Of a stretch of DNA of 64,000 nucleotides, positions 19,653-47,660 are shown one piece after another. The stretch's first letter is position 1, and each line of letters starts with the position of its first letter. Source of the stretch: Sphingomonas sp. LHG3406-1 (GTDB lineage Bacteria; Pseudomonadota; Alphaproteobacteria; Sphingomonadales; Sphingomonadaceae); the NCBI RefSeq assembly GCF_029637485.1, contig NZ_CP069128.1, forward strand, positions 2,140,001 to 2,204,000, given 5' to 3'. The position numbers and the translations under genes are program-made. The notes beneath the pieces are model-generated. The model searched no databases. It was not told the origin of the DNA and worked only from the letters and a program-made list of their open reading frames with translations.

Positions 19653-19699
19653 GTGGTCGGGGAGAGAGGATTCGAACCTCCGGCCCCTGCCTCCCGAAG
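19653..19699 (-). repeat. left attachment site (duplicate of tRNA-Pro 3' half)
   Basis: A 47-bp sequence starting GTGGTCGGGGAGAGAGGATT and ending CTCCCGAAG, identical to 47614-47660. It covers CCA end, T arm and anticodon arm 3' side of tRNA-Pro on the minus strand, but the sequence beyond it (GCGTATCCCC...) does not continue the tRNA, so this copy is the displaced tail left by integration. Confidence 0.93.
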
Positions 19700-19927: not shown

Positions 19928-21775
19928 GTGTGGATCGAATCAATCAGGATCGAGGGCGGCTCGCTTGATGGTTTCCGGCAAACCCTAAGTCGCGGACTGA
20001 ACGTACTCATTGGCGGTCGCGGCACTGGCAAGAGCTCGGTGATCGAGCTCATTCGCTTTTGCCTGGGCGCTCAGCCCTCTTCTGATGCGATTGCAAAAGA
20101 GGCTCTCGAGCACGCCCTCGGCGTTTTGGGTGATGGTAAGGTTGTTGTAGCGCTGACGAACGGCCACGATCGGGTGGAAGTTTCCAGAATCGCAACCGAT
20201 GACGATGACAGCTGTCCCCTGGAAATTCTTCCGCCGTTTGTTTTCTCCCAAAAGGAAGTCGAACAGATTGGCGCCCGCTCCCAGTCCCGAATGCGCTTAA
20301 TCGATGGATTCATAAGTGGAAGGACTGTAGCTGTCGCAAAGCGCGCGCCTCTGGATGCGCGGATTAAGTCAGCATCGACGGAGATTCGCAGTCTCTTGGC
20401 CGAGGTTGCAGACATCAGCGAAAAGCTCGTGGCTTTGCCGAAGCTGCAGTCCAGACTAACTGAGCTTCAACATCAAGGCGCGCAACGTGCCGGCAGCAAA
20501 GAGCTAGACGGCCTTCGACAGCAGCTGGATCAACTAACGCCACTTCTTAGCGCCGCCACCGTCCGAGCAGGATCGATCTGCCGCTCAGCTGAGAAGCTTG
20601 TGGAATGGACAGACGAGCTCGACCTGTTGGTGAGCCGGAGACCAACCATCGAACCGTGGCCAGCGCAAGCTGTCGCAGGGGATCAACTTCATCCCCACAG
20701 AGCGGAATTAGAAACCAACCACCAGCGCGTCATCCATGCGATTGCAGAATACAGGCGCATCGCTGCTGACCTTCAAACCCTCCAGCAGAGAGAGACCGAG
20801 GAAAGGGCCACCCTTGAGGGGCAAGGTCGTGAGGTCCGGCAAAAGATCGAAGAACATCAGAAGGGCGCAAGCGTGCTCGATAGGCAGATCGCCGATCTCA
20901 GCCAGGAAATGGCCGGGTTAGGCGCTTTGTCGGACCTGAGAGCACAGAGATTACAGCGGATCGAACGCCTGCAGGCAGAGCGACAGGTCGCCCTGGAGGA
21001 GTTGCATGCGCAAGGTGCCGCGCTGACTGCAGCTCGCCAGCAAGTCGCGAGTGATCTGACCGCGGCTCTGGCGCCCGCGATCCGTGTTACCGTGAAGCCA
21101 CTTGCAGACTATCGAGCGTACATAAGCGTACTGAACGCGGCGCTCCGAGGGAGCGGACTGCGATATCGTGAGCTCGCCGAACGTATCGCCGAGACGTTTA
21201 GCCCTGAGGAAATAGCCGTGCTTGCAGAGCGCGGTGACGTTTCCGCCATCAGCAAGGCTTTGGAAATAAACGATGAGCGGGCGGCGCGCCTGACCGAAAG
21301 CTTACGAGGAGACGCGGGCGCCGATCTCTTGGTAACAGAAGTAGGCGACGAAGTTCTTATCGAACTTCTCGATGGTACCAGCTTCAAAACCACCGACTTC
21401 CTGTCGATGGGCCAGCGCTGCACAGCCGTCTTGCCAATAATCCTCCAGCACGAAGAACGAATCATCGTGCTGGATCAGCCTGAAGACCATTTGGACAACG
21501 CCTTCGTCGTCGGAACGCTCGTGAAAGCGATCCGCGCTCGCAGCGGTTCAGCGCAAACGATCATCGCGACCCATAATCCCAACATTCCAGTTCTGGGAGG
21601 CGCCGACTGGGTCGGCCACCTTGAGTCGGATGGTGACCGCTGCTTCGTCCAGGTCGCCGGGAGCCTAGATGACGCTGAGATTGTAAATTCCATCACGAAC
21701 ATAATGGAAGGTGGCCGAGAAGCCTTCCAGCGGCGCGCAGCGTTTTATGCCGAGAGTGGCGGTGATGGGCTCTGA
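19928..21775 (+). CDS. SMC/RecN-like AAA ATPase, first gene of the four-gene operon
   Basis: A 615-residue ABC-type ATPase. Walker A GGRGTGKSS at residues 29-37; a long coiled-coil-prone middle (about 150-390, rich in Leu/Gln/Glu/Arg, e.g. LQTLQQRETEERATLEGQGR); a Q/signature region DFLSMGQRCTAVLPIIL; Walker B IIVLDQPEDHLDN with D516/E519; and an H-loop THNPNIP with H549. The DQPEDxLDN form is typical of defence-associated SMC-like ATPases (TrlF or OLD relatives) that sense DNA or phage components. The start is GTG at 19928 after GAAGG. It overlaps the next gene by 11 bases, and the whole 19928-24702 run is translationally coupled. Trigger unknown. Confidence 0.8.
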   Translation: MWIESIRIEGGSLDGFRQTLSRGLNVLIGGRGTGKSSVIELIRFCLGAQPSSDAIAKEALEHALGVLGDGKVVVALTNGHDRVEVSRIATDDDDSCPLEILPPFVFSQKEVEQIGARSQSRMRLIDGFISGRTVAVAKRAPLDARIKSASTEIRSLLAEVADISEKLVALPKLQSRLTELQHQGAQRAGSKELDGLRQQLDQLTPLLSAATVRAGSICRSAEKLVEWTDELDLLVSRRPTIEPWPAQAVAGDQLHPHRAELETNHQRVIHAIAEYRRIAADLQTLQQRETEERATLEGQGREVRQKIEEHQKGASVLDRQIADLSQEMAGLGALSDLRAQRLQRIERLQAERQVALEELHAQGAALTAARQQVASDLTAALAPAIRVTVKPLADYRAYISVLNAALRGSGLRYRELAERIAETFSPEEIAVLAERGDVSAISKALEINDERAARLTESLRGDAGADLLVTEVGDEVLIELLDGTSFKTTDFLSMGQRCTAVLPIILQHEERIIVLDQPEDHLDNAFVVGTLVKAIRARSGSAQTIIATHNPNIPVLGGADWVGHLESDGDRCFVQVAGSLDDAEIVNSITNIMEGGREAFQRRAAFYAESGGDGL

Positions 21776-22652
21776 CATTGCCCGCAAGTTAGAGTCGCGC
21801 GACCCGCGCGACAGGCTCGAAGCGGCTCGATACCTGGCCGAACACGCAGACAACAAACAAATTGTCCTTATCGAGAAGGCCCTTGCCGTCGAACCTGTCG
21901 CATGGGTGTCCAGCGCCCTTAAGCGCGCACTTCAGCGCGCCCGACCCGATGGTGACGGGCTGCGAATGCAAGAACGAATAGATCTTTCGCCAGATCAAAC
22001 CGCGCAAATCTACTCTGACGCCCTGGAAGCTACAGCAAAGCAGATCATCCACGAGATCGAGCCGATACTCGGCGCCATCCGTTTGTCCGCCGAAACAGAG
22101 ATCGGTGATTTCGAAGGGTCAGACACAAAGCGCGGATTGGAACGAATGGAAGCCCTGGTCGCGGCGCTCGCTCGGTTGCGTCAGGCCGCAGGGGCGCCAA
22201 AAGTCCAGGAATTCGCTTTAGACCAATGCATTTACGCTTGGATTGCTGAGGAAACGGAGTTGAAACCGGTGAGCGTGTTGCGGGCCGGTCCGCAGCAGAC
22301 GGTCGTCGAGGGTGACAAAGGCTTGGTAGGCTTGGCGTTCGCCAATGGCCTTCGTAACGCCGTGGACGCAACGCTCGCTCTCGCGGTCGAGAACAAGAAA
22401 TACCCCGAGATCACCGTCAATTGGGGTGTCACCGACGTCGACGTTTGGGTTGCCATCGTCGACAGTGGAATTGGGTTCCGCGGCAATCTTACGCGCGCAT
22501 TTGAAATAGGCTCGACAACCAAAGCGGGACATCTTGGCATGGGCTTGGCGACAGCTCAGCAGGCCATGACATCGCTGGGCGGAACCGTCCGCCTTATACC
22601 GGGCGAAATCGGAGTTCGGTTTGAGATGCGCTGGCCAAAGGCGACCGCGTAA
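21765..22652 (+). CDS. histidine-kinase-like HATPase protein
   Basis: A 295-residue cytoplasmic protein. Residues 1-70 look like a helical repeat (RDRLEAARYLAEHADNKQIV, HEAT-like). An H-box IIHEIEP places a candidate phospho-His at H96. The GHKL ATPase domain has N-box GLRNAVDA (N198), G1 VDSGIGF (D233), and G2 GHLGMGLA (about 257-262), then GGTVRLIPGEIGVRFEM. No sensor or membrane segment is present, so any signal must come from a partner, most likely the preceding ATPase. Start chosen at 21765, overlapping the ATPase by 11 bases; ATG 21747 and GTG 21711 are alternatives. The next gene starts within its stop (TAATG) and encodes a receiver domain, a natural phosphoacceptor. Confidence 0.75.
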   Translation: MGSDIARKLESRDPRDRLEAARYLAEHADNKQIVLIEKALAVEPVAWVSSALKRALQRARPDGDGLRMQERIDLSPDQTAQIYSDALEATAKQIIHEIEPILGAIRLSAETEIGDFEGSDTKRGLERMEALVAALARLRQAAGAPKVQEFALDQCIYAWIAEETELKPVSVLRAGPQQTVVEGDKGLVGLAFANGLRNAVDATLALAVENKKYPEITVNWGVTDVDVWVAIVDSGIGFRGNLTRAFEIGSTTKAGHLGMGLATAQQAMTSLGGTVRLIPGEIGVRFEMRWPKATA

Positions 22653-24094
22653 TGCGGGTCTTGCTGGTCGAGGATAACGTCGACTTTGCGCAGGTGATTG
22701 AAAAAGCCATTCGGGCAATTCCAGGCTGCGAGCTCGCTTGGAAGCGGAGCAAAGCCAGCGCTCTCGCGGTACTCGATGAAGAGCACTTTGACGTGGTCCT
22801 GCTCGATCGACGCATACCAACGGAAGACGGGATTCTCGACGATCACCAGGACCACGGCTGGGCCGTGTTTCAGTTTATCGTGGAGCGCCTACCCGGGACT
22901 TCTGTTTGGTTTCTTACCGGGACCGTCGACGCCGACTTTCCAACGGAGGTCCTCAACGCACACAGCCGTCGCGGCGACATCCATGCATGCGGTCGTGAAG
23001 ATGCGATCTATCAAGTTTTCTGGAAGGACCGGATGACCGACTGTGTCGCTGCCGTCCGGGCATTCCGAGCGGACGTCCAGCACACGGAGGCAATCCACTT
23101 AGCGCAGGTCGGAACTCCGGCGAATTTGCGTGCTGAGGAGGAGCGGCTTCTAAGATTGTTCGGTCGATCGCACGGCGGGGCGCGTGTTGAGGTACGCATT
23201 CTGCAGGCGGGGCTATCTGGGGCTAGAGTGCTGAGAGTGTCTGTTCTGAATGCAGCGGGCGCCGTCATGATCACATCGGTCGCTCGCATTGGGACACACG
23301 GAGAAATCGCGTCAGAGCGCGACAAATATCGAACCGAGATTGTGAAGCTTGCTAATGGGGCGTTTCCGCCGGTCACGGCAGATCTCGATCTGGGCGCGGC
23401 TGGGTTCGCGGCAATCTTCTATCAAGTGGTCGGAAACGAAGTCCGGTCACTCTTCGACGAATTGACTGCTGACCCGGCTACCGCTGCCGAGGCTGTGAAT
23501 CGGCTTTGTGCGGACCAGGCGTCTTGGCGCGGGGCGCGGCAAACGGAAATGGTCAGGGTATCGACCGTGCGGCGAGATCTCATTGGCGACGTGGCCTTGG
23601 AGCTCGTCGCACCCTTGCTCGACGGTATCGACATCGCTCCAGTCGAGCTCGTCGAGATTCAAGTCGCGCGATCGGTTCAACATCGTGACCTACACTGCGG
23701 CAACGTTCTTTTCGATGCCAACGGGCGCCCTATGGTGATCGATTACCCGGACACAGGCCGGACCGCAGCGTGTCTTGACCCCGTTTCGCTTGAGTTGAGT
23801 ACCATCTTTCATAAGGACGCACCCGATCGAGCGGGTTGGCCAACGATCCACCAAGCCGAGAACTGGCCTGATTTGGACGGATTTTGCGGAGGGTCGATCT
23901 ATGAGCCATTTGTAAGAGCTTGCCGAGCGTGGGCCGTCGACGCGGCCGCATCTCAACAGGAGGTTCTCGCGGTCGCGTATGGCTACGCGCTTCGGCAGTT
24001 GAAGTATGATGATACGGACAAGGCGCTCGCAAGAGCGATAATTCGCGGCTGCATCGCGCAGCTCCTGGGTGGCGGCTCGACCGACAAAGAATGA
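22652..24094 (+). CDS. receiver domain fused to a kinase/phosphotransferase-fold domain
   Basis: A 480-residue fusion. Residues 1-140 are a complete receiver: acidic pair E7-D8, phospho-Asp D52 (VVLLDRRIP), T89 (FLTG), K125 (FWKDRM). The C-terminal part (about 170-430) has a protein kinase/aminoglycoside-phosphotransferase style catalytic loop HRDLHCGNVLF (H344, D346, N351) and a DFG-like IDYPDTG (D364), then LDPVSLELS. The N-lobe lysine is not clear. It resembles the kinase-like domains that Aravind and colleagues noted in ternary conflict systems (a TCAD-type domain), but I cannot confirm that by eye. Its stop overlaps the HEPN gene start (ATGA). Probably the output step of the system: phosphorylation by the HATPase protein could switch the kinase-like half. 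Confidence 0.7.
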   Translation: MRVLLVEDNVDFAQVIEKAIRAIPGCELAWKRSKASALAVLDEEHFDVVLLDRRIPTEDGILDDHQDHGWAVFQFIVERLPGTSVWFLTGTVDADFPTEVLNAHSRRGDIHACGREDAIYQVFWKDRMTDCVAAVRAFRADVQHTEAIHLAQVGTPANLRAEEERLLRLFGRSHGGARVEVRILQAGLSGARVLRVSVLNAAGAVMITSVARIGTHGEIASERDKYRTEIVKLANGAFPPVTADLDLGAAGFAAIFYQVVGNEVRSLFDELTADPATAAEAVNRLCADQASWRGARQTEMVRVSTVRRDLIGDVALELVAPLLDGIDIAPVELVEIQVARSVQHRDLHCGNVLFDANGRPMVIDYPDTGRTAACLDPVSLELSTIFHKDAPDRAGWPTIHQAENWPDLDGFCGGSIYEPFVRACRAWAVDAAASQQEVLAVAYGYALRQLKYDDTDKALARAIIRGCIAQLLGGGSTDKE

Positions 24095-24702
24095 CGCTCG
24101 CTATGAAAGAATACGGGCGCGCTGAGGTCCTCCAAGCTCACCTTGGACTAACCACCTCTGTTGCGACGAAGATTGCGGCTATCCTTAGCTTCGCGGGCGC
24201 AATCGAACATTTCGTCGAACGAGCGATTTGGAGGTTGAACGGCATCGATCCGCGCGGGACTAAGCCCGATACCGATGGCAAGGTGATTAGCGATCTGATC
24301 GGAATGTTATCGCGTTTTGGCGAAACGCTGGTCGATGAGGATGATCGCACGTTTATTGCAGCCTGGTGCGAAGCGGCTTCCTACGGCTTCACTATACGCC
24401 ATAACATCGCGCACGGCGTTCCCATCAAGGTCGGTGACACGCTTGCATACATGCGTAATCCGCGGTGGGAGGGAGAGCAGCGAAGGCGTGAGTTCGGCGA
24501 CTTCTGGGCCGAGCAGGCCTCTGTTGAATTGGTGTGCGACGCTATGGCGGTTCTCTATCGGTCTATTTTCAGCCTTTCAAGAGCCGATGCGAAGATAGAG
24601 GATGTCGCGACGCACTCTGCGGTGCGTGCCTTGCGAACGGCGCGGTCTGTTCTTGGTGAGTTCGCCAGCCAAACGTACAATCCGAGTTACGAAAAATATT
24701 GA
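24091..24702 (+). CDS. HEPN-domain-like protein with RX4H motif
   Basis: A 203-residue all-helical protein. FTIRHNIAHGV carries RHNIAH, R103 to H108, the RX4H active-site pattern of HEPN ribonucleases; the preceding FAGAIEHFVERAIWRLN and following ASVELVCDAMAVLYRSIF are the helices expected on either side. Start ATGA at 24091 overlaps the stop of the receiver-kinase gene, so it is made together with it. HEPN proteins in defence operons usually cut tRNA or mRNA on activation and kill the cell; here that role is inferred from motif plus operon context. The operon ends here, 62 bases from a convergent gene. Confidence 0.65.
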   Translation: MTLAMKEYGRAEVLQAHLGLTTSVATKIAAILSFAGAIEHFVERAIWRLNGIDPRGTKPDTDGKVISDLIGMLSRFGETLVDEDDRTFIAAWCEAASYGFTIRHNIAHGVPIKVGDTLAYMRNPRWEGEQRRREFGDFWAEQASVELVCDAMAVLYRSIFSLSRADAKIEDVATHSAVRALRTARSVLGEFASQTYNPSYEKY

Positions 24703-24764: not shown

Positions 24765-25604
24765 TCAAAGATCCGCCTCGGCTTTTAGCGTACGTAAGTC
24801 GTCCACGAAGGCGTCACGCATCTTCGTGGTGTAGATGCGTGCAATCTTCCCCTCGTTCTGGCGCGAGACGATCTTTCGAAGGTCAGAAGTCCTCTGCTCC
24901 CAGGTAGTGCCGTCTGTCACGAAGAGCAGCGTAGTGTCGTGACGTTTCGCCGCGATGATTGCATCGAGATCGCCGATGATATCGGTCATCTTGGAACCGG
25001 TGGCACCATAGCCTTTCACCTCGATCAGAATGCGGGGCCGAAGCTTGTCGGGAATGGCCATGTCGCACTTGGCGGACTCCCCGGCTGCACCTGTGAAGGT
25101 GCAACGTGTTTGGTATCCACCTTCGCCGAAAACCTCCTTGACCAACGCCTCGGCAAAGTCCTCCAAGCCCCGGCCCCGCTTCTGCCCCTGGATCGCCGAG
25201 CCGCGGCCGGAACGAAGGCGCTCAACTAGGATGTCACTCCAAACAGGCTGGTAGTTCACCGCTTTGGTCATCGCGACCGGCAAGCCCATGGCATCCAAAG
25301 CGATGTAGTAGGCGTCGGGGTCAGCTGCATAACGCCTAGCTCCGGAGCCACCGGGCCCTAACGCGCGTCGGAGATCTTCCTCCATCTTGTCCTTAGACTT
25401 AGCGAGGAACAGGCGAGCACAAAGGATTGCGGTGTTGAATGGCCCGTCGAACAAAAGCGCGATGTCAGCCGCGTCGTAACGAACTTTGTGTGGCAGGTCG
25501 GCGAGCTTTGCGATGGCCGCAGACGCTTCGTCGTCCATCCACTCAACGTCGAGCGGACTCAGATTTGCAAGGATGTCGTCGAGCGACTGGTCGATGACCC
25601 TCAT
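24765..25604 (-). CDS. DpnII-like restriction endonuclease
   Basis: A 279-residue PD-(D/E)XK nuclease. The catalytic motif is D181 in KCDMAIPDKLRP and E195-V-K197 in ILIEVKGYG, in the classical D-x(10-30)-(E)xK spacing; the preceding GRGLEDFAEALVKEVFGEGGYQTR helix-strand is also typical. It overlaps the end of the adjacent adenine methyltransferase by 4 bases (ATGA), the standard layout of a type II R-M pair, with the endonuclease second. DpnII-type enzymes cut GATC; the target here cannot be read from the protein, so only the class is claimed. Confidence 0.8.
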   Translation of the reverse strand: MRVIDQSLDDILANLSPLDVEWMDDEASAAIAKLADLPHKVRYDAADIALLFDGPFNTAILCARLFLAKSKDKMEEDLRRALGPGGSGARRYAADPDAYYIALDAMGLPVAMTKAVNYQPVWSDILVERLRSGRGSAIQGQKRGRGLEDFAEALVKEVFGEGGYQTRCTFTGAAGESAKCDMAIPDKLRPRILIEVKGYGATGSKMTDIIGDLDAIIAAKRHDTTLLFVTDGTTWEQRTSDLRKIVSRQNEGKIARIYTTKMRDAFVDDLRTLKAEADL

Positions 25605-26707
25605 GATTGGCCGACTATGAGGTACTCGGTGACGCTGGCGCGCTCGACCCGGCCGTGAGTTCCGAAGTGATAGCGATGGGGCTGCTCGAACACCGAAATC
25701 TTGCGCTTGTGTCGCCCCATTAGCTGAACCAGCTGCTCCAAGTCCGGAAACCCGTTTGAGCTATACGACAGCACGATCGTGCTGCGTGAGAAGCGCGCAA
25801 ACAGTCTGTCGAATGCCTCGACGGCACTGCGGCGGTAACTGAACGGCGTGTGCCGCTTTGCGATCTTCTTCGACTTGGTTGAAGCGTCGATCTCTAGTCC
25901 CTGCCAGTAGCAGGAAAGGCCCTCTAGGAAATGGTAGCGTTTGATGTAGCAGTTATCGTCGGCCCTCGGCACGTACGGCGGGTCAAGATACACCAGGTCG
26001 ACTGATTTCTGCGGAAGCTGGAACACGTCTGAACGAAGCGCGTGGTTCCGACGTCCGTTATCGAAGACAGCGCCATTGAAGACCTCAACCTGCTCCAGGA
26101 AGTGCTCTTCCAGAGTTAGGCGAAGATCGCGACGACCATCATCGTAGCGGGACAGGTCTCCGGTAATTGTGAAAACGCCGCGCGGCTGCCGCTTGAGGCA
26201 GGATCTGAATAGGGCAGCGAATGCGAGCGCCTGCTCATAAGGGTCATCTAGTTGCCGAATGTTGCCGGAGATCGCATCCAGGAACTTCAGGTCTTCGGGC
26301 GTGTAGAAAACGCCCGCAAACGTCTCTTGGATGAACCGGTGAGACCCGCTCTCTGGTGCCAACAACGATTTAATGGCCTTGCCACCCAGCCTTACATGAT
26401 TGTTCTCGACCAGAGCCCGGCTGATGATGCTCGTGAAGTTAAGGAAGTCGGACGCAACCACGCGGCGGCCCATGGCCTTCATTAGGTAAGCCACGGCTCC
26501 AGTGCCCGAGAACGGATCGGCGGCGCTTTCAAAATCGAGCGTGGCGAGCACCTGATGAATCCAAGACAGGAGGCGCTTTTTCGACCCCATGTACCGTAAT
26601 TCAGGGTACTTCAGTGCTCGCTCGGGGATCACCAACGGTGCTACGTCGCTTACGCCGCCGCGTTTCAGGGCAACGACGTTTCCGGTTGGTGCTCTGGCAG
26701 GTTCCAT
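25601..26707 (-). CDS. D12-class adenine-N6 DNA methyltransferase
   Basis: A 368-residue Dam-like type II methyltransferase that protects sites from the coupled endonuclease. Motif X region LRYMGSKKRLLSWI near residues 37-50; motif I AADPFSGTGAVAYLM with DPFSGTG at 64-70; motif IV VDLVYLDPPYVPRADDNCY with DPPY at 242-245. Between motifs I and IV lies the target-recognition region. The ATG at 26707 is the first start with the conserved N-terminus. The endonuclease start overlaps its stop. The pair looks intact, so the island probably carries a live restriction-modification unit. Confidence 0.88.
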   Translation of the reverse strand: MEPARAPTGNVVALKRGGVSDVAPLVIPERALKYPELRYMGSKKRLLSWIHQVLATLDFESAADPFSGTGAVAYLMKAMGRRVVASDFLNFTSIISRALVENNHVRLGGKAIKSLLAPESGSHRFIQETFAGVFYTPEDLKFLDAISGNIRQLDDPYEQALAFAALFRSCLKRQPRGVFTITGDLSRYDDGRRDLRLTLEEHFLEQVEVFNGAVFDNGRRNHALRSDVFQLPQKSVDLVYLDPPYVPRADDNCYIKRYHFLEGLSCYWQGLEIDASTKSKKIAKRHTPFSYRRSAVEAFDRLFARFSRSTIVLSYSSNGFPDLEQLVQLMGRHKRKISVFEQPHRYHFGTHGRVERASVTEYLIVGQS

Positions 26708-28389: not shown

Positions 28390-29466
28390 GTGTTCGATTT
28401 CGACAATTTCCCCTTTCACGAACGGGATTTCGAGACACCACTCTTCAAGGACGTCGCAGACTTCGTCTCCCAGGAGGCGAGGCCCCATATCTTCGTGAAC
28501 AAGCTGCGGGATCGGCACCAGTCCCACCATGTTCTTGCCCGACGCGGTCGACCGTCCCGCGAGCTGGGAATTCCAGAAGTCGGTTCCGCGATATCCGCAT
28601 TTGAATTCGCGGCAGCGAACGGGCTCTGGAAGGACATACACGTGACGATCGATTTCGCGAGAATGGGCGCCCACGAGCCTGCAGAGGTTCAGCAAGTCCT
28701 GAACCGGTGGTTACGGTGCCTGGCAGAGTGGTGCCGGGAACAAGGAATCCCCTGTGCGTACACCTACAGCGTCGAAATGTCGGCTTCCTACGAATATCAC
28801 GCACACGTCGCGGTCCATGTCCCGGGTGACAGCGAGTGCTCCGGCAGGCGATTGCGCACGAAATTTCGCAAATGGAATAGGGGGTATACCGGCCGGCGTG
28901 GGCCGCACGTCGCCAAGGCGATCAAGGTTCGGGGTGGAAGCGAGGCCTCTGAACTCGGGCACTGGATCGTTTTCAGCTATCTGGTGAAGGGTTTCGATAG
29001 GACTGCCGTGCTCTGCTCAGGGCGCAACAGCCCGGACGGACACGATGTGCGCTTGGGTGACATTATCGCGAAGTCGTATCGCGATCCTGGACCGGTCGCG
29101 GTCAGCCGTCGAATCAGTGTGTCGAACAGCCTTGGCCCCGCCAGGCGGGCAATCGGCGTTCCAACGGGGCTTGAAGATCGACTGGCTCAGGAACCTGACA
29201 CCAATTGGAGCGGGTTCGATTTCGAGCGCACCGCGCCAATGTCCGCGGAAGAACGGCTAACTCCGTTCAAATGGAAGCCGGTGCACAAGCCATTCCGCTC
29301 CACGTTCGAGGATGGGATTTACGATGTCCGCAGGCTCTACCCAGTTTGCTTCTACGAACACGTGACCAGGCTGCACCTTTCGCCGGTGAACGAGGTCGCG
29401 AACGACGATAACCACGACGACCACTATGATCTGACCGAGGCACTTCGCTCACTTGACGTCGATTGA
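28390..29466 (+). CDS. HUH-endonuclease-like replication/mobilization protein
   Basis: A 358-residue protein with the three-part pattern of rolling-circle Rep/relaxases: DIHVTIDFARM (motif 1, residues 82-92), YHAHVAVHVP with H137-x-H139 (the HUH pair), and a C-terminal FSYLVKGFD with candidate catalytic Y197. YL(V/L)KG is typical of RCR initiators. The region after residue 230 is variable. The start is GTG at 28390, behind a GGGAG site. In an island this would nick an oriT or a replication origin and explain how the element spreads without its own conjugation genes. I cannot name the family. Confidence 0.55.
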   Translation: MFDFDNFPFHERDFETPLFKDVADFVSQEARPHIFVNKLRDRHQSHHVLARRGRPSRELGIPEVGSAISAFEFAAANGLWKDIHVTIDFARMGAHEPAEVQQVLNRWLRCLAEWCREQGIPCAYTYSVEMSASYEYHAHVAVHVPGDSECSGRRLRTKFRKWNRGYTGRRGPHVAKAIKVRGGSEASELGHWIVFSYLVKGFDRTAVLCSGRNSPDGHDVRLGDIIAKSYRDPGPVAVSRRISVSNSLGPARRAIGVPTGLEDRLAQEPDTNWSGFDFERTAPMSAEERLTPFKWKPVHKPFRSTFEDGIYDVRRLYPVCFYEHVTRLHLSPVNEVANDDNHDDHYDLTEALRSLDVD

Positions 29467-29841
29467 GGCTCGCACCCCCGATCCGAGGACAGCGCCAAAC
29501 TCAGTGACTTTTCTGAACCCCTATCTCGGTTCATTTGACGTAGGTCTGAAGAATGGAGCGGTCGTTCTTTGACGGTCGCTTCAGATCGGCCCAGCACCAT
29601 CTGAAAGCCGAACGTCTGCAGTCGGGGTCGAAAACTGGCCAATTCGCATCTGCGTTTAACAGATGCTCCACCCCTTCTGCGCCAGCAGGAAATGTGGTTG
29701 CAGTCTGATTCGAACGCGTGGCGTCCGACATCTACTGCGGCAACGTTCCGGAGTGATTGCTATTTTCGAACTGACGGGCTTAACTCCAAACGCCGAGTAA
29801 GGGGGAAAGGTGCGTTTAGTCAGGGCGTCGCACTGGCCCGC
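29467..29841. other. intergenic region before the MORC-type ATPase
   Basis: 375 bases with no convincing gene. The ATPase frame is open back to 29692, but residues encoded there are low-similarity and lack a ribosome site, so this is treated as leader and promoter. A GTG at 29908 with AAAGGA one base before it is another possible start. Confidence 0.4.
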
Positions 29842-31395
29842 ATGCGCCAGCATGCGCGCAGGCGCGTGTATCTATCTTCGTCCACGTCTCACGTCCCGAG
29901 AAAGGACGTGACGGGCGAGGAATTCGCGGATGCTACACCAAACGCAGGCTCACTCATCCAGAGTCTGCGGGATATCGGCTACTCCTGCGAAACGGCTCTA
30001 GCCGATATCATAGACAATTCGATCACGGCGGGCGCGAGGAACATAGACGTTCTTTCGAACGCCACGGCCGACGAGCCCGCTGTTGGCGTGCTGGACGACG
30101 GTTCCGGGATGACCAAGGCCGAACTCATCGAGGCAATGCGACCCGGGAGTAGCAGCCCTCTCGCGGACCGGGCCAGCCATGATCTCGGCCGTTTTGGTCT
30201 CGGTCTCAAGAGTGCGAGCTTCTCCCAGGCAAAACGACTTACGGTGGTCACCCGAAAGGAAGGAGTGACTGTTGGCGCGACGTGGGATCTGGACCTCGTT
30301 GCGCAAACCAACCGGTGGGAGATTCAGCTTCACCATGATGTAAGCGAGATCCCCTGGGCTGATCGAATAGGCGACCAGGGGACCCTGGTGCTGTGGCGTT
30401 CGCTTGATCGACTTTCGGGCGGGATTACCGGCGACCACGCGAGGCGAGCCCAGCACATCAACCGTGCCATGGCCGCTGCGGAGCGACACATCCGGCTCGT
30501 ATTCCACCGCTTCATGAGCGAGGACCGGCCTCCGCTTGCTGTGCGGCTGAACGGCCGGCACCTTGAGCCACTGGACCCATTCGGCACCACCTTTCCGTCA
30601 CACCAGAGCGAACGCCCGGACCGCCTTAATCTCCAGCATGGCGATGTCGTGTTCCAGAGCTTCACGCTGCCACACCACAAGTCCATCAATCGTGCCGAGT
30701 GGGAGGACCTCGGTGGACCCGAAGGTCACCTCCGATCGCAGGGATTCTACGTTTATCGCGGTCGGAGACTGATTATCGCCGGCAGCTGGCTTGGTCTTGC
30801 GCGGCAGACTGAACTGACAAAGCTGTGCCGCATCAGGGTCGACATCCCGAACACGATGGATGCCGACTGGAAGATCGACGTCAAAAAGGCTTCGGCCCAG
30901 CTCCCCCCCGCTGTGAGAGAGCGGATGCGGGTTCTCGTGGAGCGCCTGTCGCTGACGTCCCGCAGAACTTATCAGAAACGGGGTCAAAGGCTCGTCGACG
31001 AGGAGTACCTCCCAGTTTGGCAGCGCATCCAGAAGGATGGCGCGATCATCTACCGACCGGACACGGCACATCCAGTATTCGCTGATTTTTCAGCACGCCT
31101 ACCGTCCGAACTTCAGGACGAATTCGCGAACCTGATCGGGCTGCTAGGGTCGACGATACCAGTGGCATCACTTCATGCAGACTTCGCAGGCCAGGCGGAA
31201 GAGGTGAAGGCCGACGAGGCTGAAGATCCCGCGATTACCCAGCTCGCACAGGCCATGATCCCTCGGCTCATCGATCAGGGAACTGATCCTGACCGGATCC
31301 CGGACATACTTCAGCAGATCGATCCATTCCGCTCGAGCTGGTCTCGTGCGGAAATGATCATCGACGACATCCTCAGGAGCTTCGACGATGAGTGA
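29842..31395 (+). CDS. MORC/MutL-type HATPase of a Z1 R-M-like system
   Basis: A 517-residue GHKL ATPase. The N-terminal part, after FADATPNAGSLIQSLRDIGYS, has the N-box ALADIIDNSITAGARNI, G1 LDDGSGMTKAEL, and G2 GRFGLGLKSASFSQAK. This exact style is that of the MutL/MORC-like ATPases which Iyer, Abhiman and Aravind linked to R-M-like operons with Z1 helicases. The C-terminus (about 430-517) is acidic and variable. Start ATG 29842 is the first ATG before the conserved core; a GTG at 29908 is possible. It overlaps the Z1 gene by 8 bases. It probably acts as a DNA-clamp switch for the helicase-nuclease partners. Confidence 0.82.
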   Translation: MRQHARRRVYLSSSTSHVPRKDVTGEEFADATPNAGSLIQSLRDIGYSCETALADIIDNSITAGARNIDVLSNATADEPAVGVLDDGSGMTKAELIEAMRPGSSSPLADRASHDLGRFGLGLKSASFSQAKRLTVVTRKEGVTVGATWDLDLVAQTNRWEIQLHHDVSEIPWADRIGDQGTLVLWRSLDRLSGGITGDHARRAQHINRAMAAAERHIRLVFHRFMSEDRPPLAVRLNGRHLEPLDPFGTTFPSHQSERPDRLNLQHGDVVFQSFTLPHHKSINRAEWEDLGGPEGHLRSQGFYVYRGRRLIIAGSWLGLARQTELTKLCRIRVDIPNTMDADWKIDVKKASAQLPPAVRERMRVLVERLSLTSRRTYQKRGQRLVDEEYLPVWQRIQKDGAIIYRPDTAHPVFADFSARLPSELQDEFANLIGLLGSTIPVASLHADFAGQAEEVKADEAEDPAITQLAQAMIPRLIDQGTDPDRIPDILQQIDPFRSSWSRAEMIIDDILRSFDDE

Positions 31396-34147
31396 CGTGG
31401 TGGACCAGCTCGATGCGGTGGTCTCGGTAATGGTCAGTTCGGATGCGGCGCCGACCGCCGACAGCATCCGCAGCACCATCGACGCAATGAGAGCTGCAGG
31501 CCCGTTTGCTGCAGTCACCGACGAGCAGGCAGAGAAGCTCGCACGTGAGCTCGAGGAGCGCATCGGCATCAGCATGGGCATCGGTGCGGTGGTCGGCCAG
31601 CGCGACTTCAAGCCATGGCTCAACGATGCAAAGGCCAGTGGTAAGATCGATCCATATTACTGGAACCGATATCGAAAGCTGCTGCAGTCGAAGAGGCTTC
31701 CTGCAGACGTAATCACCGGCATCGACACGGTTACCGACCGGATCCTCGACCGGATGGGCAATCCGCACGATGAGGGTGAATGGGATCGCAAGGGCATGGT
31801 CGTCGGCCATGTGCAGAGCGGCAAGACGGCCAATTATACTGGTTTGGTCTGCAAGGCTGCTGACGCCGGGTACCGTCTGATCGTCGTCATCGCAGGCATC
31901 CACAACAATCTCCGCAACCAGACACAGGCCCGCATTGATGAGGGCTTTGTCGGGCGGGACACAGGACGGCTGGAACAGCGCGAGACCCGCGACAGGCCGC
32001 GAACAATCGGCGTCGGTACATTCGACGACCGCCGCGCTCCCGTCAGCCTGACTACGACGCTCAAGGACTTCAACAAGTCAACCGCGACAACCAACACGAG
32101 TCAGATCGCGTCTTATGCGGTGCCGGTGGTGCTCGTTATCAAAAAGAACTCGCGCACGCTGGCGAACCTCATCGACTGGCTTCGCGAACACAGTGCTGGC
32201 CGCCGGTCGGAGATGGTGGACCAGCCGATGCTGCTTATCGATGATGAGGCGGACAACGCGTCAATCAACATCGCCTATGGCAAGGAGGAGGTCTCCCGGA
32301 TTAACGGTCAGATCAGGGACCTTCTCGGCGTGTTCCGTCGCAGCTGCTATGTGGGGTACACCGCCACCCCGTTTGCGAACATCTTTATTGATCCGGACTC
32401 GGTCGATGAGGTCTACAGCGAGGACCTGTTCCCGCGGCACTTCATTATCGGCCTTGATGCGCCGTCGAACTACTTTGGTGCACGCAAGGTGTTCGTCGAC
32501 GGCGTTCCGGATGAGGAAGGCGAACGCCCAACCTATCTTAGATACATTGACGACAATGGCGACGTGCTGCCGGTGCAGCACAAGATCAGTCACGACGTCA
32601 GCGAGCCTCCGTCTAGCCTCGTCGATGCGCTGCGTACCTTCCTCGTGGCGCGAGCCATCCGCAATCTGAGGGGCCAGCAGGCGCAGCATGCGTCGATGCT
32701 GGTCAACGCTTCTCGGTTCACCGGCATCCAGATGCAACTGCGTAACCGGCTCCACGAGCAGCTGCGGGTCATTGAGGACGCGCTGCGTGTCGATGGCGGC
32801 GATGTTGAAGCCGCCGCTCGCAATCCCGAAATTGTCGCCCTGCGCGAGCGTTTCCTAGATGAATACGCAGACTCGGGGCATGACTGGTCCGACATTCTCC
32901 GAGGTCTGCTGTCGGTGGCGGCATCGGCAACTGTGGTAGCGGTCAACAGCCAGTCGCCTGCCAGTCTCGACTATGACGTGCGTTCCGAGAACGGTCTGAC
33001 CGTCATCGCGGTTGGCGGCTTCTCCCTTTCGCGCGGGCTGACGCTGGAAGGGCTCACGGTCTCCTATTTCCTGCGCAACTCCCTCATGTACGACACTCTC
33101 ATGCAGATGGGTCGCTGGTTCGGTTACCGGCCGGGTTACGAAGACCTTTGTCGCATCTGGATGCTGCCTGATGCAGCGTCCTGGTACGCTCACATCAGTG
33201 ACGCCACCGAAGAGCTGCAGCAGGAACTCAAGCGGATGGAGCAGGCCAACGCTACCCCTGAGCAGTTCGGACTGGCAGTTCGCAGCCATCCCAGCGCGCT
33301 TATGGTGACAGCGCGCAACAAGATGGGCTCCGGCGAGAAGCACGTGCTTGTCGGGCTTTCGAACAATTTCGTCGAAACAACGAAACTTGGTGCGTCGAGC
33401 CGTGCACTTTCGGCCAATCGAGATGCGCGAGATCGGCTACTCGCTGCGCTCAGCGCGCAGGGTCACGGCGAGTCCGCCTCAACAAAGGTGTCCGGAGGGC
33501 TGCTCCTCTCCGACGTCCCGGTTGATCTGATCGATGACTTCCTGCGCGACTTTGAGAATGAGCGGGAATCGGTTCTCACCGACACTAGGCCCATCAGGCA
33601 GTACATCGGCGATCGCCGCGATGATGAGCTCGCGAAGTGGGATGTCCTTGTTTCGGCCCGGAACTCTGCACCCACGTCCGAACAGATCGACATTGGTGGC
33701 TGGTCTCTGGCGCCGATTACACGCTCCGTAGGCGCCGAAGCATTTGAGAGAGGCATTCTGGCAGTCAGCGGCAAGCGTGCGCGCGTCGCCTCGCGTGGAA
33801 TGGAAAAGGCCGGCGTGGAACGCGAACGCGCCCAGGCTGCGGAAGCGCAGTATCGATCCGATCAGAACCTGGGTGAGGATGACGACATCAACTACCCCGA
33901 TCGCATCTACCGGGAGGCGCGCACGCGGCCGCTGTTCATCCTGTTCAACATTGCGATCAAGCCTGATGGACTAAGCGAAGAGCAGCAGACGCGCCTACCG
34001 TCTGAGCCGGTAGTCGGGTGGGGAATCAGCTTCCCGAAATCGAACCGGGCGGATCAGACGGTCGAATATATTTTGAATACCACCAAGCTGCGGGAACTCT
34101 TCGGCGACGAAGACAGCGATGAAGGCCAGTTCAGTGAAGATGAATGA
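31388..34147 (+). CDS. Z1-domain superfamily 2 helicase-like ATPase
   Basis: A 919-residue protein. Walker A GMVVGHVQSGKTANYTGL (G140-T147) and Walker B MLLIDDEADNASIN (D285-E287) are clear, followed by the Z1 core YVGYTATPFANIFIDPDS, MQMGRWFGYRPGYEDLCRIW and TARNKMGSGEKHV. Z1 proteins are DNA-dependent ATPases/translocases of R-M-like systems. It overlaps both neighbours (MORC ATPase by 8 bases, DUF4420 by 8), so the four + strand genes 29842-37162 form one unit. Likely moves along DNA after target recognition and activates the nuclease. Confidence 0.85.
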   Translation: MSDVVDQLDAVVSVMVSSDAAPTADSIRSTIDAMRAAGPFAAVTDEQAEKLARELEERIGISMGIGAVVGQRDFKPWLNDAKASGKIDPYYWNRYRKLLQSKRLPADVITGIDTVTDRILDRMGNPHDEGEWDRKGMVVGHVQSGKTANYTGLVCKAADAGYRLIVVIAGIHNNLRNQTQARIDEGFVGRDTGRLEQRETRDRPRTIGVGTFDDRRAPVSLTTTLKDFNKSTATTNTSQIASYAVPVVLVIKKNSRTLANLIDWLREHSAGRRSEMVDQPMLLIDDEADNASINIAYGKEEVSRINGQIRDLLGVFRRSCYVGYTATPFANIFIDPDSVDEVYSEDLFPRHFIIGLDAPSNYFGARKVFVDGVPDEEGERPTYLRYIDDNGDVLPVQHKISHDVSEPPSSLVDALRTFLVARAIRNLRGQQAQHASMLVNASRFTGIQMQLRNRLHEQLRVIEDALRVDGGDVEAAARNPEIVALRERFLDEYADSGHDWSDILRGLLSVAASATVVAVNSQSPASLDYDVRSENGLTVIAVGGFSLSRGLTLEGLTVSYFLRNSLMYDTLMQMGRWFGYRPGYEDLCRIWMLPDAASWYAHISDATEELQQELKRMEQANATPEQFGLAVRSHPSALMVTARNKMGSGEKHVLVGLSNNFVETTKLGASSRALSANRDARDRLLAALSAQGHGESASTKVSGGLLLSDVPVDLIDDFLRDFENERESVLTDTRPIRQYIGDRRDDELAKWDVLVSARNSAPTSEQIDIGGWSLAPITRSVGAEAFERGILAVSGKRARVASRGMEKAGVERERAQAAEAQYRSDQNLGEDDDINYPDRIYREARTRPLFILFNIAIKPDGLSEEQQTRLPSEPVVGWGISFPKSNRADQTVEYILNTTKLRELFGDEDSDEGQFSEDE

Positions 34148-35105
34148 CCCCTGGCAGGGGCTCTCCGCGGGCTCGATCGATGCGCGACGCGTATCCGGAG
34201 AGGGGAAGCACGACTTCTTCTGGATCACGTCTAGCAGCAGTGAACCTGGACTGCTGCTGCGGCTTCCTGCGGGGATCGAAGAGCCGGCTTCGCTCCCGAA
34301 ACTCCGCAACCTGGAAATCGCTATCCGCGATGTTGTCGGGGGACGAGCAATCGTCATCCTCCTGAAGGATCCGGACCAGCGAGAGCTCTTCGTGAGTCTT
34401 TGCCGCGACGTCGTCGGCGCAGCCGAAACTGCAGCAACCACTCAGGACGCAGTCACACGCGCGGTCAGGCGCCTGTTGCGATGGCATCATCTGCTCAGAG
34501 GTGGTCGGTCGGACATACTGTCTCTCGAGGAGCAGAGGGGCCTGATCGGGGAACTACACTTCCTCGAGAGGCTCGTGTCGCTCATCGGACCACGAGCGGC
34601 GATCGAAGCGTGGCGAGGCCCGTTTGGTGCTTCGAAGGATTTCGAGCTCGACAGCTTGCTTGTCGAGGTGAAGGCTCGCCGGGGGGCGGCAAAGCCTTAC
34701 GTGCAGATATCGTCCGAGGATCAGCTCGCCGATGTGGCGGGCACTAGCCTGTTCCTCTGCGTCAGTCCCGTTGATGCTGTGATCAAGCCCGAGGGCCTCA
34801 CACTCGCTGATCATGTTCGACGGATCGAGGAGATCTTTATCGCAGCCGATACGGACTCGCTCGTGCTCTGGGAAGAAGCGATTCAGGCGTCAGGATATGA
34901 TGTCGCGGATGACTATTCCGACCGACGGTGGAAGGTCGGAGAAACGCTGGATCATCGGGTCGAGGGCGAGTTCCCGCGGATCGTGCCGCCGCTCACGGTC
35001 GGGGTGGGCGGAGTACGCTATTCGATCTCGCTAGGAGCCTGCTCGTCATACCGGATGCAGGAAGGCGATCTTGACGGGCTGATCAGCGGCGGAGGGCTGC
35101 CATGA
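34140..35105 (+). CDS. DUF4420 PD-(D/E)XK family nuclease
   Basis: A 321-residue protein. RGLIGELHFLERLVSLIG, then AWRGPFGASKDFELDSLLVEVKARRG: the DUF4420 signature, with D171 and E176-V-K178 as PD-(D/E)XK catalytic residues. Start taken at ATG 34140, which overlaps the Z1 stop, rather than 34119; GTGAAG lies just upstream. In MORC/Z1 clusters this protein is the DNA-cutting partner. It overlaps AIPR by 4 bases (ATGA). Confidence 0.8.
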   Translation: MNDPWQGLSAGSIDARRVSGEGKHDFFWITSSSSEPGLLLRLPAGIEEPASLPKLRNLEIAIRDVVGGRAIVILLKDPDQRELFVSLCRDVVGAAETAATTQDAVTRAVRRLLRWHHLLRGGRSDILSLEEQRGLIGELHFLERLVSLIGPRAAIEAWRGPFGASKDFELDSLLVEVKARRGAAKPYVQISSEDQLADVAGTSLFLCVSPVDAVIKPEGLTLADHVRRIEEIFIAADTDSLVLWEEAIQASGYDVADDYSDRRWKVGETLDHRVEGEFPRIVPPLTVGVGGVRYSISLGACSSYRMQEGDLDGLISGGGLP

Positions 35106-38704: not shown

Positions 38705-38766
38705 TGAACGAATCTGCCTCCTGTCCGTACGCTTACCAGGAAGTTCGCAGGGTTCCAGGAGAAGAA

Positions 38767-39258
38767 ATGGTCGACGTTGTCGACAAGGCGACACGCTCAA
38801 GGATGATGGCGGGAATCCGTGCAAAGAACACAAAGCCGGAGGTTGCTCTCAGGAGTGCTCTTCACAGGCTCGGCTTCCGGTTCCGCATCCACGATCGCAA
38901 ACTGCCGGGAAGCCCGGATATCGTGTTGCCTCGTTACAGGGCGGCCGTGCAGGTTCATGGATGCTTCTGGCACAGGCACGAGGGGTGTCGGTTTTCCACA
39001 ATCCCTTCTTCGAGGCCTGAATTCTGGCAGGCCAAGTTCAACGCCAACTTAAAGCGCGATCGAAGCGCCACCGTCCGCTTGAAAGAAGCGGGATGGAGGA
39101 CGGGCGTGGTCTGGGAATGCGCAATCAGGGAAAGAGGCGCTGGCGAAGTCGCGCGCGAACTTGCGGCTTGGCTCAAGAGCGACAGCGAGTTCGTTGAGTT
39201 ATCCTCAGCGCCTCGCGGCGGAGCCGGCCTGAAAGCGACTTCAACCTGTGGCTTCTGA
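38767..39258 (+). CDS. vsr: very short patch repair endonuclease
   Basis: A 163-residue Vsr nuclease that nicks at T:G mismatches made when 5-methylcytosine deaminates. Features: SRMMAGIRAKNTKPEVALRSAL at the N-terminus, PGSPDIVLPRY with catalytic D51, VQVHGCFWHRHEGC with H64 and H69, matching E. coli Vsr (156 residues). The ATG at 38767 is behind AGGAGAAG. It sits beside a C5-methyltransferase, the usual functional partnership; divergent orientation shares one promoter region. Confidence 0.93.
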   Translation: MVDVVDKATRSRMMAGIRAKNTKPEVALRSALHRLGFRFRIHDRKLPGSPDIVLPRYRAAVQVHGCFWHRHEGCRFSTIPSSRPEFWQAKFNANLKRDRSATVRLKEAGWRTGVVWECAIRERGAGEVARELAAWLKSDSEFVELSSAPRGGAGLKATSTCGF

Positions 39259-40960: not shown

Positions 40961-40974
40961 CGCCGACGGTCCGA

Positions 40975-42039: not shown

Positions 42040-42103
42040 GAACGATTCTCCAATGCCTATGACGCGCAACGATTCAGTTAAGCCCGGCAGATCTTGCGGG
42101 CCC

Positions 42104-42312: not shown

Positions 42313-42367
42313 CCTGATCGTCGATCAACTCAATCTATGGACTGAATGAAGGTGGATTGGTCGTTGT

Positions 42368-43278: not shown

Positions 43279-43602
43279 ATGCCGCGCGCGTACACGGTGG
43301 CGTCGCTCGCCGAGGAGTGGGCCTGCTCCGAAGGTGTGATCCGGAAGGCCATCGCCAACGGTGAACTCGGCTGTTTCCGGCTGGGATCACTGATCCGCAT
43401 ACCCATTGAGGAAGTTAGGCGCTTCGAATGCCAGAATTCAGTGTGCAACGACTGCGTGGAGGATACGCCATCGTCTGGCGTGACGAAGCAGGTAAACGTC
43501 GCAGATTCACCCTTGAGGCTACCGATCGCACCACCGCGCAAGCGGAGGCGCGCGGCTGGTGGAAGCGTAATACTGGCGCAGCCAGCACGGTCGGTGGGAT
43601 AG
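43279..43602 (+). CDS. excisionase-like helix-turn-helix protein
   Basis: A 107-residue protein with an N-terminal MerR/excisionase-type winged helix: YTVASLAEEWACSEGVIRKAIANGELGCFRLGSLIRIPIEEVRRFE. This is the standard short DNA-binding domain that directs excisive recombination and often overlaps the integrase gene, as here (175-base overlap in another frame). The basic tail (APPRKRRRAAGG) may come from overlap. ATG at 43279 begins just before the domain. Confidence 0.7.
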   Translation: MPRAYTVASLAEEWACSEGVIRKAIANGELGCFRLGSLIRIPIEEVRRFECQNSVCNDCVEDTPSSGVTKQVNVADSPLRLPIAPPRKRRRAAGGSVILAQPARSVG

Positions 43603-44432
43603 TTGAGGCCTACATCGATGCGCGCGAGGCCGCGGAGATTGCGTCAACCGCGCGTCAGCGTGACGCCTGGAAAGCGATGCAACCGTACTGGGCCAAAGTG
43701 GAACCCGCGATGATCGATCATGAGATGGCGCAGGAGTATGTCCGCCGTCGCGACCGATCAGACTCAACCACTCGGTATGAACTCTCGATGCTCGCTGTCG
43801 CACTCCGGTGGGCTGCAAAGCAGGACCTGATCGACAAGGCTCCAGAGGTCTGGCGCCCAGCGGCACCTGAGCGCCGTGAGAAGCATCTTTCCCCTCGCGA
43901 GTTCGGGCGATGGTTCGCCGAAGTGAAGGCGGAGCACGCTCGTCTATTTGTGGAGATCGCGATCGCCACGATGGCACGGCCGAGTGCAATCCTCGAGCTT
44001 ACTTGGCGCCAGGTCGACTGGGAGCGAGGAATGCTCAATCTCAATCCTCCCGGGCGGCGCCAGACGAAGAAGCGCCGGCCGATTGTGGCGCTGGAAGAAG
44101 AGACGATCGCCGTGCTGAGGACGGCCTTCGAAGGTGCCCAAAGCGACTACGTGATCGAGCGCGGCGGCAAGAAGATCGACAGTATCAAGAAGGCGTTCCA
44201 GGCGGCATCAAAGCGGAGTGGGATTCATGTCACTCCGTACACGCTGCGGCATACTGGCGCCGTATGGGCGGCTGAGCGCGGAACGCCCATGACTGAGCTG
44301 GCCCAGTTCATGGGGCACGACGATGACCGAACCACGCAGAAACACTACGCGCGGTTCTCACCGACCTATCTCCGAAGTGTGTCTTCGAACCTTAGGGCTG
44401 CACGCAATGAGGCCGCCGCACTGGCCGACTAA
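43428..44432 (+). CDS. int: tyrosine integrase
   Basis: A 334-residue phage-type integrase. The N-terminal SAM-like core-binding domain (about 50-130) precedes a catalytic domain with Arg in MARPSAILELTWRQVD, His-x2-Arg in HVTPYTLRHTGAVWAAE, and His/Tyr in FMGHDDDRTTQKHYARF, so all catalytic residues are present. It begins MPEFSVQRLRGGYAI. It lies about 3.2 kb from the tRNA attachment site and reads toward it; in between are the HEPN/fusion pair. It should excise and integrate the whole 28-kb unit. Confidence 0.93.
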   Translation: MPEFSVQRLRGGYAIVWRDEAGKRRRFTLEATDRTTAQAEARGWWKRNTGAASTVGGIVEAYIDAREAAEIASTARQRDAWKAMQPYWAKVEPAMIDHEMAQEYVRRRDRSDSTTRYELSMLAVALRWAAKQDLIDKAPEVWRPAAPERREKHLSPREFGRWFAEVKAEHARLFVEIAIATMARPSAILELTWRQVDWERGMLNLNPPGRRQTKKRRPIVALEEETIAVLRTAFEGAQSDYVIERGGKKIDSIKKAFQAASKRSGIHVTPYTLRHTGAVWAAERGTPMTELAQFMGHDDDRTTQKHYARFSPTYLRSVSSNLRAARNEAAALAD

Positions 44433-47181: not shown

Positions 47182-47614
47182 TGGCTCTCACTTCGGCGGG
47201 AATACGAGATAGTCCGCCAACGATGGGAACGACCGTAGCCCCTTCAACGGTTAGTGTGGCCAACTTCGGAATTCAGACGTCGGCCGGGCTCGGTCGCCAC
47301 TCGGACGGACCGGATGTCATTTTCTGCACGCTTGCTGTTCCGACCAAAGGCTATGAGCACCCTAGAGTTATCCAAGAAGTGCAGATCGGACCCGGGCATG
47401 GTGTATATTTAGCAGAGATAACAAACACTTAGCGTCGCGGCTGGTCGTCGCGGGTCACAGGACACATTCAAAAAAGCACTAATGGACCGTGCCAGATGGC
47501 GTCCGGTGGTCAGCGCGCTGGCTGTGCGCAACGACGGCACAAGGTTCAATGTGAGCCTCCGACCCCTGTCCTTCTGCGCGGTCGCGCAGCGATATTGCTC
47601 TCGCGAATAAGTGG
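47182..47614. other. intergenic region between the fusion gene and tRNA-Pro
   Basis: About 430 bases, holding the start region of the fusion gene, a weak + strand ORF (47223-47432, 69 residues, MGTTVAPSTVSVANFG..., without ribosome site) and an inner att-like repeat. I see no other gene. Confidence 0.4.
47541..47570 (+). repeat. inner att-like repeat, right end
   Basis: AAGGTTCAATGTGAGCCTCC then GACCCCTGTC. Matches 19794-19822 at about 26 of 30 positions with one gap and resembles the att core. It lies 44 bases from the att repeat, against 95 on the left. Confidence 0.5.
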
Positions 47615-47660
47615 TGGTCGGGGAGAGAGGATTCGAACCTCCGGCCCCTGCCTCCCGAAG
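47614..47660 (-). repeat. right attachment site
   Basis: Identical to 19653-19699; lies within the intact tRNA-Pro gene, covering anticodon-loop side to CCA. Integration replaced the tRNA 3' half with the same sequence, keeping the gene functional. Confidence 0.93.

What the first reader, a model, noticed from the sequence alone, without database searches (positions are those of the whole stretch)
19928..24702. Candidate new defence system: SMC-like ATPase + HATPase kinase + receiver-kinase fusion + HEPN
Four genes overlap each other by 1-11 bases and sit at the left edge of a defence island. The ATPase looks like a sensor; the HATPase protein has an H-box (H96) and N/G boxes; the third protein has a full receiver (D52) joined to a kinase-fold with HRDLHCGNVLF; the fourth has RHNIAH, an RX4H HEPN motif. 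This would be a phosphorelay that unleashes an RNase. I know of Detocs, which also uses a two-component logic, but its genes are different, and I cannot match this one to a named system.
Basis: partly seen in the sequence, partly recalled or inferred. Interest (0 to 1): 0.88.

Follow-up and report, generated by a model that had tools for sequence, protein, structure and literature searches.

The report
Phosphorelay-controlled kinase defence cassette
A mobile three-gene cassette (an ATPase, a histidine kinase, and a receiver joined to a second kinase) sits in an integrated defence island and looks like an unnamed anti-phage alarm relay; a fourth gene, thought to be its RNA-cutting weapon, is only an occasional passenger.

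Summary
Four overlapping genes (A-D) lie at the left end of a 28-kb island bounded by a 47-bp repeat of tRNA-Pro. A-B-C is the unit: 23 of 28 relatives in the genome scan, and 6 of 6 plasmid loci opened, carry it in that order, across Alpha-, Beta- and Gammaproteobacteria and Actinobacteria. Its active-site residues are almost invariant and the three distance matrices agree closely. Flanking genes match 150 defence families, control segments 5. A is a TrlF/Ppl-type ATPase without the PHP enzyme; B a soluble histidine kinase; C a receiver fused to an APH-fold kinase (Pfam TCAD9). D, the proposed HEPN RNase, was not found in the 23 complete loci, nor in five plasmid loci scanned for it. It recurs only in close relatives and elsewhere has other neighbours, once a Gabija operon. 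The relay therefore most likely switches on the kinase in C, with D an optional add-on. I found no description of this cassette. Defence function, signal and substrate are untested. It resembles Detocs in logic but fails the gene-content test for it.

The parts
19653..19699 (.). left attachment repeat of the island (47 bp, copy of part of tRNA-Pro)
   Evidence: perfect direct repeat with 47614-47660
19928..21775 (+). gene A, 615 aa: SMC/RecN-like ABC ATPase of the TrlF/Ppl kind, without the N-terminal PHP domain; probable sensor
   Evidence: NCBIfam NF045780 TrlF 248 bits (below its cut-off of 350), matching profile 291-943 of 944; Spaf_1101 family 140 bits; PADLOC Ppl 65 bits, best of 88 families; Pfam AAA_21, AAA_23; G29, Q108, S493-G495-Q496, D516 and H549 invariant in 30 of 30, K35 at least 90%
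21765..22652 (+). gene B, 295 aa: cytosolic histidine kinase; H96 at 22050-22052, N- and G-boxes
   Evidence: Pfam HATPase_c 1.3e-8; H, E, two N and the glycine boxes invariant in 30 of 30
22652..23089 (+). gene C, receiver domain (residues 1-146); phospho-acceptor D52 at 22805-22807
23129..24094 (+). gene C, APH-fold kinase domain (residues 160-480), Pfam TCAD9; D346 at 23687-23689; probable output enzyme
24091..24702 (+). gene D, 203 aa: possible HEPN protein with RHNIAH (RX4H); optional accessory, not part of the conserved core
   Evidence: 109 family members listed, the own one included; motif conservation; mostly helical model pLDDT 88.7; not found in 23 of 23 complete A-B-C loci
43428..44432 (+). 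tyrosine integrase of the island
   Evidence: Pfam Phage_integrase 2.7e-19
47614..47660 (.). right attachment repeat, inside tRNA-Pro(CGG) 47615-47691 (- strand)

Best explanation
A-B-C is a self-contained, horizontally moving defence cassette. Shown from sequence: A is an SMC-like ATPase lacking the PHP enzyme of its TrlF/Ppl relatives; B is a soluble histidine kinase; C is a receiver fused to an APH-fold kinase; the three are conserved together and often sit among defence genes. Inferred: A detects a phage-linked cue (DNA or nucleoprotein, by analogy with SMC-like sensors) and stimulates B to autophosphorylate on H96; the phosphoryl group passes to D52 of C; this releases C's kinase, which phosphorylates an unknown small molecule or macromolecule and stops phage production or host growth. 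In a subclade a HEPN-like gene D has been added behind C, as it has behind at least one other defence operon, as an optional second effector or guard.
For: Gene order A-B-C in 23 of 28 relatives of the genome scan, down to about 30% identity, and in 6 of 6 plasmid loci opened (L060 by annotation only). Distance-matrix correlations 0.962-0.972 over 29 sets against a maximum of 0.404 in 2,000 permutations. Catalytic residues of the ATPase, histidine kinase, receiver and kinase almost all invariant. The one full-length C with neither A nor B beside it (L025) is the only one of 31 aligned without D52, while its kinase residues remain. No recurrent gene was seen behind C, so the output should lie inside A-B-C. 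Flanking genes: 150 PADLOC families at E up to 1e-20 from 116 proteins against 5 from 111 controls; Shedu directly behind C in L002, Hachiman genes beside L043, a type III restriction gene just upstream of A in L014. Island with tRNA att repeats, plasmid carriage (48 of 72,556 records), patchy presence (3 near-full-length of 396 genomes, own included).
Against: No experiment shows defence. The kinase substrate and A's ligand are unknown. In the window and three near relatives the beta-3 lysine of the kinase is arginine (27 of 31 have K, 4 R), which can lower activity. The D52 argument rests on one orphan in a metagenome bin. A's TrlF score is below the curated cut-off. Flank controls are arbitrary segments, not matched mobile islands, so part of the enrichment may reflect mobility; family counts overstate the number of proteins. 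No copy was found in phage records or viral contigs.
Confidence: 0.5

Rival explanations
1. One reading: the four genes are one system and the phosphorelay unleashes the HEPN RNase D, with C's kinase domain a relay or antitoxin for D.
For: 4-base stop/start overlap of C and D. RX4H motif nearly invariant.
Against: No D relative in 23 of 23 complete A-B-C loci nor in L042-L046 and L049. D also lies behind Gabija and in other loci without A, B or C nearby. HEPN fold not firmly shown.
Confidence: 0.12
2. C's kinase domain is not the weapon: it is a phosphorylation-gated scaffold or regulator, and A (with B and C) acts directly on phage or host nucleic acid or chromosome structure.
For: A is an SMC-like ATPase, and C's beta-3 position is R in the window clade. 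Kinases with disrupted catalytic residues in related conflict systems are reported in PMC7159879 (passage).
Against: H344, D346, H348, N351 and D364 are kept in 31 of 31, unlike a decayed kinase; no nuclease family was recognised by me in A.
Confidence: 0.18
3. The cassette is not a defence system but a plasmid or island maintenance (addiction) or stress-signalling module.
For: Plasmid carriage; toxin-antitoxin and transposase neighbours; no direct defence assay.
Against: PADLOC-listed restriction, SduA, HamA/HamB, LmuB, BrxL and MkoA genes flank it far more than controls; A is related to the anti-phage protein Ppl.
Confidence: 0.2

Closest known systems
Detocs (defensive two-component system, DtcA-DtcB-DtcC)
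   Same: Three genes; a histidine kinase signalling to a response regulator with an effector (read as passages in PMC11249213, and PMC11728103; that the effector is fused to DtcC is recalled).
   Different: No DtcB-like phosphate buffer; an SMC-like ATPase instead. The output is an APH-fold kinase, not an ATP-cleaving PNP domain.
Ppl / TrlF-family PHP-ATPases
   Same: Gene A aligns to the ATPase part of TrlF (248 bits, profile 291-943), to the Spaf_1101 family (139.9 bits) and more weakly to Ppl (81.9 bits).
   Different: The region before profile position 291, which holds the PHP phosphoesterase of TrlF (recalled), is absent; a histidine kinase and receiver-kinase stand next to it instead.
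TCAD9 domain of vWA-MoxR-VMAP ternary conflict systems
   Same: C's kinase domain belongs to Pfam PF19974 TCAD9. The domain is tied to VMAP systems in a figure legend of PMC10910872, and active APH-type kinases are named as rare effectors in PMC7159879 (passage).
   Different: No vWA, MoxR or VMAP gene is part of the cassette; the kinase is fused to a receiver with its own histidine kinase. The PMC7159879 passage says no histidine kinases were found among vWA-associated effectors.
PorX-type response regulators with enzymatic output
   Same: A response regulator carrying an enzyme domain (passage in PMC12839542).
   Different: PorX carries a PglZ phosphodiesterase domain, not a kinase.

Membership tests
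Detocs | histidine kinase gene | tested here: met
   gene B, HATPase_c plus invariant H, N and G boxes; sequence homology to DtcA itself was not tested
Detocs | separate phosphate-buffer protein (DtcB) | tested here: not met
   the only receiver found in the operon is fused in C; the third core gene is an ABC ATPase
Detocs | response regulator with an ATP-cleaving PNP or alternative effector | tested here: inconclusive
   C is a receiver fused to an APH-fold kinase, no PNP match; whether Detocs variants use kinases was not looked up
TrlF / Ppl | SMC-like ATPase module with Walker, Q-loop, signature and H-loop residues | tested here: met
   (motif names assigned by me)
TrlF / Ppl | N-terminal PHP domain | tested here: not met
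   match starts at profile 291 of 944; Walker A at residues 29-37 of A; no PHP match in Pfam
TrlF / Ppl | curated score cut-off (NF045780 350 bits; NF042955 1000 bits) | tested here: not met
   248.1 and 81.9 bits
TCAD9 (PF19974) | score above the curated gathering cut-off | tested here: met
   70.5 bits against 40
vWA-MoxR-VMAP ternary system | vWA, MoxR and VMAP genes in the operon | tested here: not met
   no such match among genes A-D
Two-component signal transduction | phospho-acceptor His and Asp with the supporting catalytic residues | tested here: met
Two-component signal transduction | phosphotransfer from B to C | not testable with these tools
   needs purified proteins
HEPN superfamily (gene D) | RX4-6H motif in a helix | tested here: met
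   RHNIAH within helix 83-108
HEPN superfamily (gene D) | sequence or fold match to HEPN proteins | tested here: inconclusive
HEPN superfamily (gene D) | RNase activity | not testable with these tools
   needs an assay

The most novel reading that the evidence does not exclude
A-B-C is an undescribed class of anti-phage system: an SMC-like infection sensor that has swapped a built-in PHP effector for a dedicated phosphorelay, whose response regulator is itself a small-molecule/protein-type kinase, so that infection is turned into a His-Asp signal and then into phosphorylation of a cellular target. Gene D belongs to a portable HEPN-like accessory family that docks behind unrelated defence operons (this one, Gabija) as a guard or second effector.
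Probability: 0.35. Interest if true: 0.8.

Novelty: new variant of a known kind. Interest (0 to 1): 0.62.

Why it matters
Two-component signalling is a main bacterial way of sensing the outside world, yet few defence systems are known to use it (recalled; Detocs is the one met here). A cassette that couples an SMC-like ATPase to a histidine kinase and a receiver-controlled kinase would show how infection sensing can be wired through a phosphorelay. It would also give a testable substrate question: what does the APH-fold kinase phosphorylate? Finally, it would link the Ppl/TrlF sensors and the TCAD9 domain, both poorly understood, to one mechanism. Three consecutive genes are enough to test it.

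Tried and rejected
Rejected: D as the conserved effector. Rejected: a different conserved fourth gene. Ten downstream same-strand genes, picked by hand from ten loci (one of them the orphan L025), gave Shedu, two resolvases, an integrase, an HD protein, an inositol-phosphatase-like protein (L025) and four without a clear family. Rejected: spread by phages, since C is absent from 50,697 phage records and from IMG/VR by pattern scan (D likewise). A megablast of the Klebsiella plasmid version against E. coli genomes found nothing, but that search only sees close DNA.

Led nowhere: Foldseek of D against the PDB had no match with E up to 0.001, and the second look put a designed repeat protein and GPI transamidase above the HEPN-type chains. 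PDB sequence searches: no relative of B at the threshold, only distant ABC proteins for A, only receivers for C, nothing convincing for D. Literature searches (listings and abstract starts) and passages of PMC7159879, PMC8195603, PMC7824862, PMC12137116 and PMC12839542 gave no description of the cassette. The DefensePredictor paper (PMC13092281, passages only) lists HATPase and REC among abbreviations for untested predicted systems in a figure I could not see, so a mention there is possible. The ABC-ATPase classification of 2020 (NAR gkaa726) is not held and may mention it. I do not know whether PADLOC-DB 2.0.0 contains Detocs models, so the absence of such a hit is not evidence.

Counting notes: of the 29 loci, L030 was dropped as a 26-residue match. 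Of the other 28, 23 have A-B-C (L021 and L029 with broken frames), L004 has B-C at a contig edge, L027 has A and C pieces without B, L026 and L028 hold only a C piece (L028 at the contig start), and L025 has C alone. Contig pairing of D with B or C is inferred from equal 'longest contig' lengths in three lists (that of B shows 120 of 264). Matches at 3895, 16339, 19707 and 1577683 (B, C and D all three) and 3583123 (B and D) are firm; 4905 (C and D) and 5568 (B and D) could be chance. For the flank test 20 loci were used (L009, a near copy of L008, and L021, L029 left out); 116 of 126 eligible ORFs from 18 of the 20 were scanned (L023 and L024 left out for size). Of 125 control ORFs 111 were scanned: one of 16 segments and five of the largest ORFs were left out for size. 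The counts returned are of PADLOC families, not of proteins, and one protein can match many.

Full report
What is there. The four ORFs are at the stated coordinates and overlap by 11, 1 and 4 bases. Gene A begins about 230 bases inside the left repeat of a 28-kb island. A perfect 47-bp repeat stands at 19653-19699 and at 47614-47660, the latter inside tRNA-Pro(CGG), with a tyrosine integrase at 43428-44432. The rest of the island holds a DpnII-like nuclease with a D12 methylase, MzaB-C-D-E, a C5-type methylase with Vsr, an ArdC-type protein and a PDDEXK_13 nuclease. So the island is real and is a defence island.

The unit is A-B-C. A scan of species genomes with the C alignment gave 29 loci. 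One is spurious. Of the 28 others, 23 have A, B and C in that order, in Alpha-, Gamma- and (with broken frames, L029) Betaproteobacteria and Actinobacteria, down to about 30% identity; the other five are a contig-edge B-C, one decayed locus, two C pieces and one orphan. Six plasmid loci opened, one of them from a betaproteobacterium, all show the same trio, one (L060) by annotation only; C itself is in 48 of 72,556 plasmid records, 36 of them Piscirickettsia. A-B, A-C and B-C distance matrices of 29 sets correlate at 0.972, 0.966 and 0.962, with a permutation maximum of 0.404. This shows that the genes travel together, not that they act together. In one order sample C is near full length in 3 of 396 genomes, the own one included (two further matches cover only the receiver region), a patchy pattern. 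The orphan C of a Dehalococcoidia bin (L025), with no A or B found in the 8 kb either side, is the only one of 31 to have lost D52 (Gly) while keeping the kinase residues checked. One case, but it is what loss of the partner kinase predicts.

Is it defence? Flanking proteins of 18 loci (116 scanned) matched 150 PADLOC families at E up to 1e-20; the 25 shown include type I, II and III methylases, type III and IIG restriction, a type I specificity subunit, SduA, LmuB, MkoA, HamC and BrxL. Single cases: SduA (Shedu) directly behind C in L002, HamA and HamB (Hachiman) beside L043, a type III restriction gene just upstream of A in L014. This is association only.

How it most likely works. Inferred chain: A senses, B autophosphorylates on H96, C is phosphorylated on D52, and C's kinase acts on an unknown target. 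The kinase is favoured as output because no recurrent gene was seen behind C, A lacks the PHP enzyme of its relatives, and the kinase site is kept, apart from K or R at beta-3. In PMC7159879 (passage) active APH-type kinases are named as rare effectors in other conflict systems. I put about one half on this whole chain, and much more on the cassette being a real three-gene unit.

Known or new. By logic it works like Detocs (passages in PMC11249213, and PMC11728103), but it lacks the buffer protein and the PNP effector and has a different third gene, so it is not filed as Detocs. It is not TrlF/Ppl by the PHP and score tests. It is not a VMAP ternary system, although it shares the TCAD9 domain. 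PADLOC gives no family for B or D, and for C only weak receiver-region matches to PDC-M60B (30 bits) and SduA (23 bits). Within the searches made no paper describing the cassette appeared, with two sources I could not read noted under Tried and rejected.

Noticed in passing
window 19653-47660: 28-kb genomic island integrated at tRNA-Pro(CGG), with 47-bp att repeats and a tyrosine integrase at 43428-44432.
   Followed up: yes
window 29692-37162: MzaB-MzaC-MzaD-MzaE defence genes (300, 472, 62 and 265 bits to PADLOC models); no MzaA was looked for.
   Followed up: partly
window 24765-26707 (- strand): DpnII-like restriction nuclease next to a D12-class adenine methylase, directly behind D.
   Followed up: partly
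window 37187-39258: C5-type methylase (DrmMII-like) with a Vsr nicking nuclease on the other strand.
   Followed up: no
window 40049-42069 (- strand): ArdC-type antirestriction protein (ArdcN plus metallopeptidase) beside a PDDEXK_13 nuclease: an anti-defence gene inside a defence island.
   Followed up: no
window 42104-42338: Tandem repeat of a 47-nt unit, followed by GAGGTA repeats at 42399-42446.
   Followed up: no
window 28390-29466: ORF with a weak match, below cut-off, to replication-associated protein ORF2/G2P.
   Followed up: no
L052 4590-8934: A relative of gene D is the third gene, 17 bases behind a full Gabija operon: D-type genes may be portable accessories of different defence operons.
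   Followed up: partly
L060 9798-11018: Radical-SAM gene with a weak prokaryotic viperin match (41.6 bits), 1.4 kb behind an A-B-C cassette on a Phaeobacter plasmid.
   Followed up: no
window 45379-47181 (- strand): 600-aa ORF starting with a DCACGSGRRYGDCHG stretch that looks like a SEC-C zinc motif (recalled, not searched), at the right end of the island.
   Followed up: no
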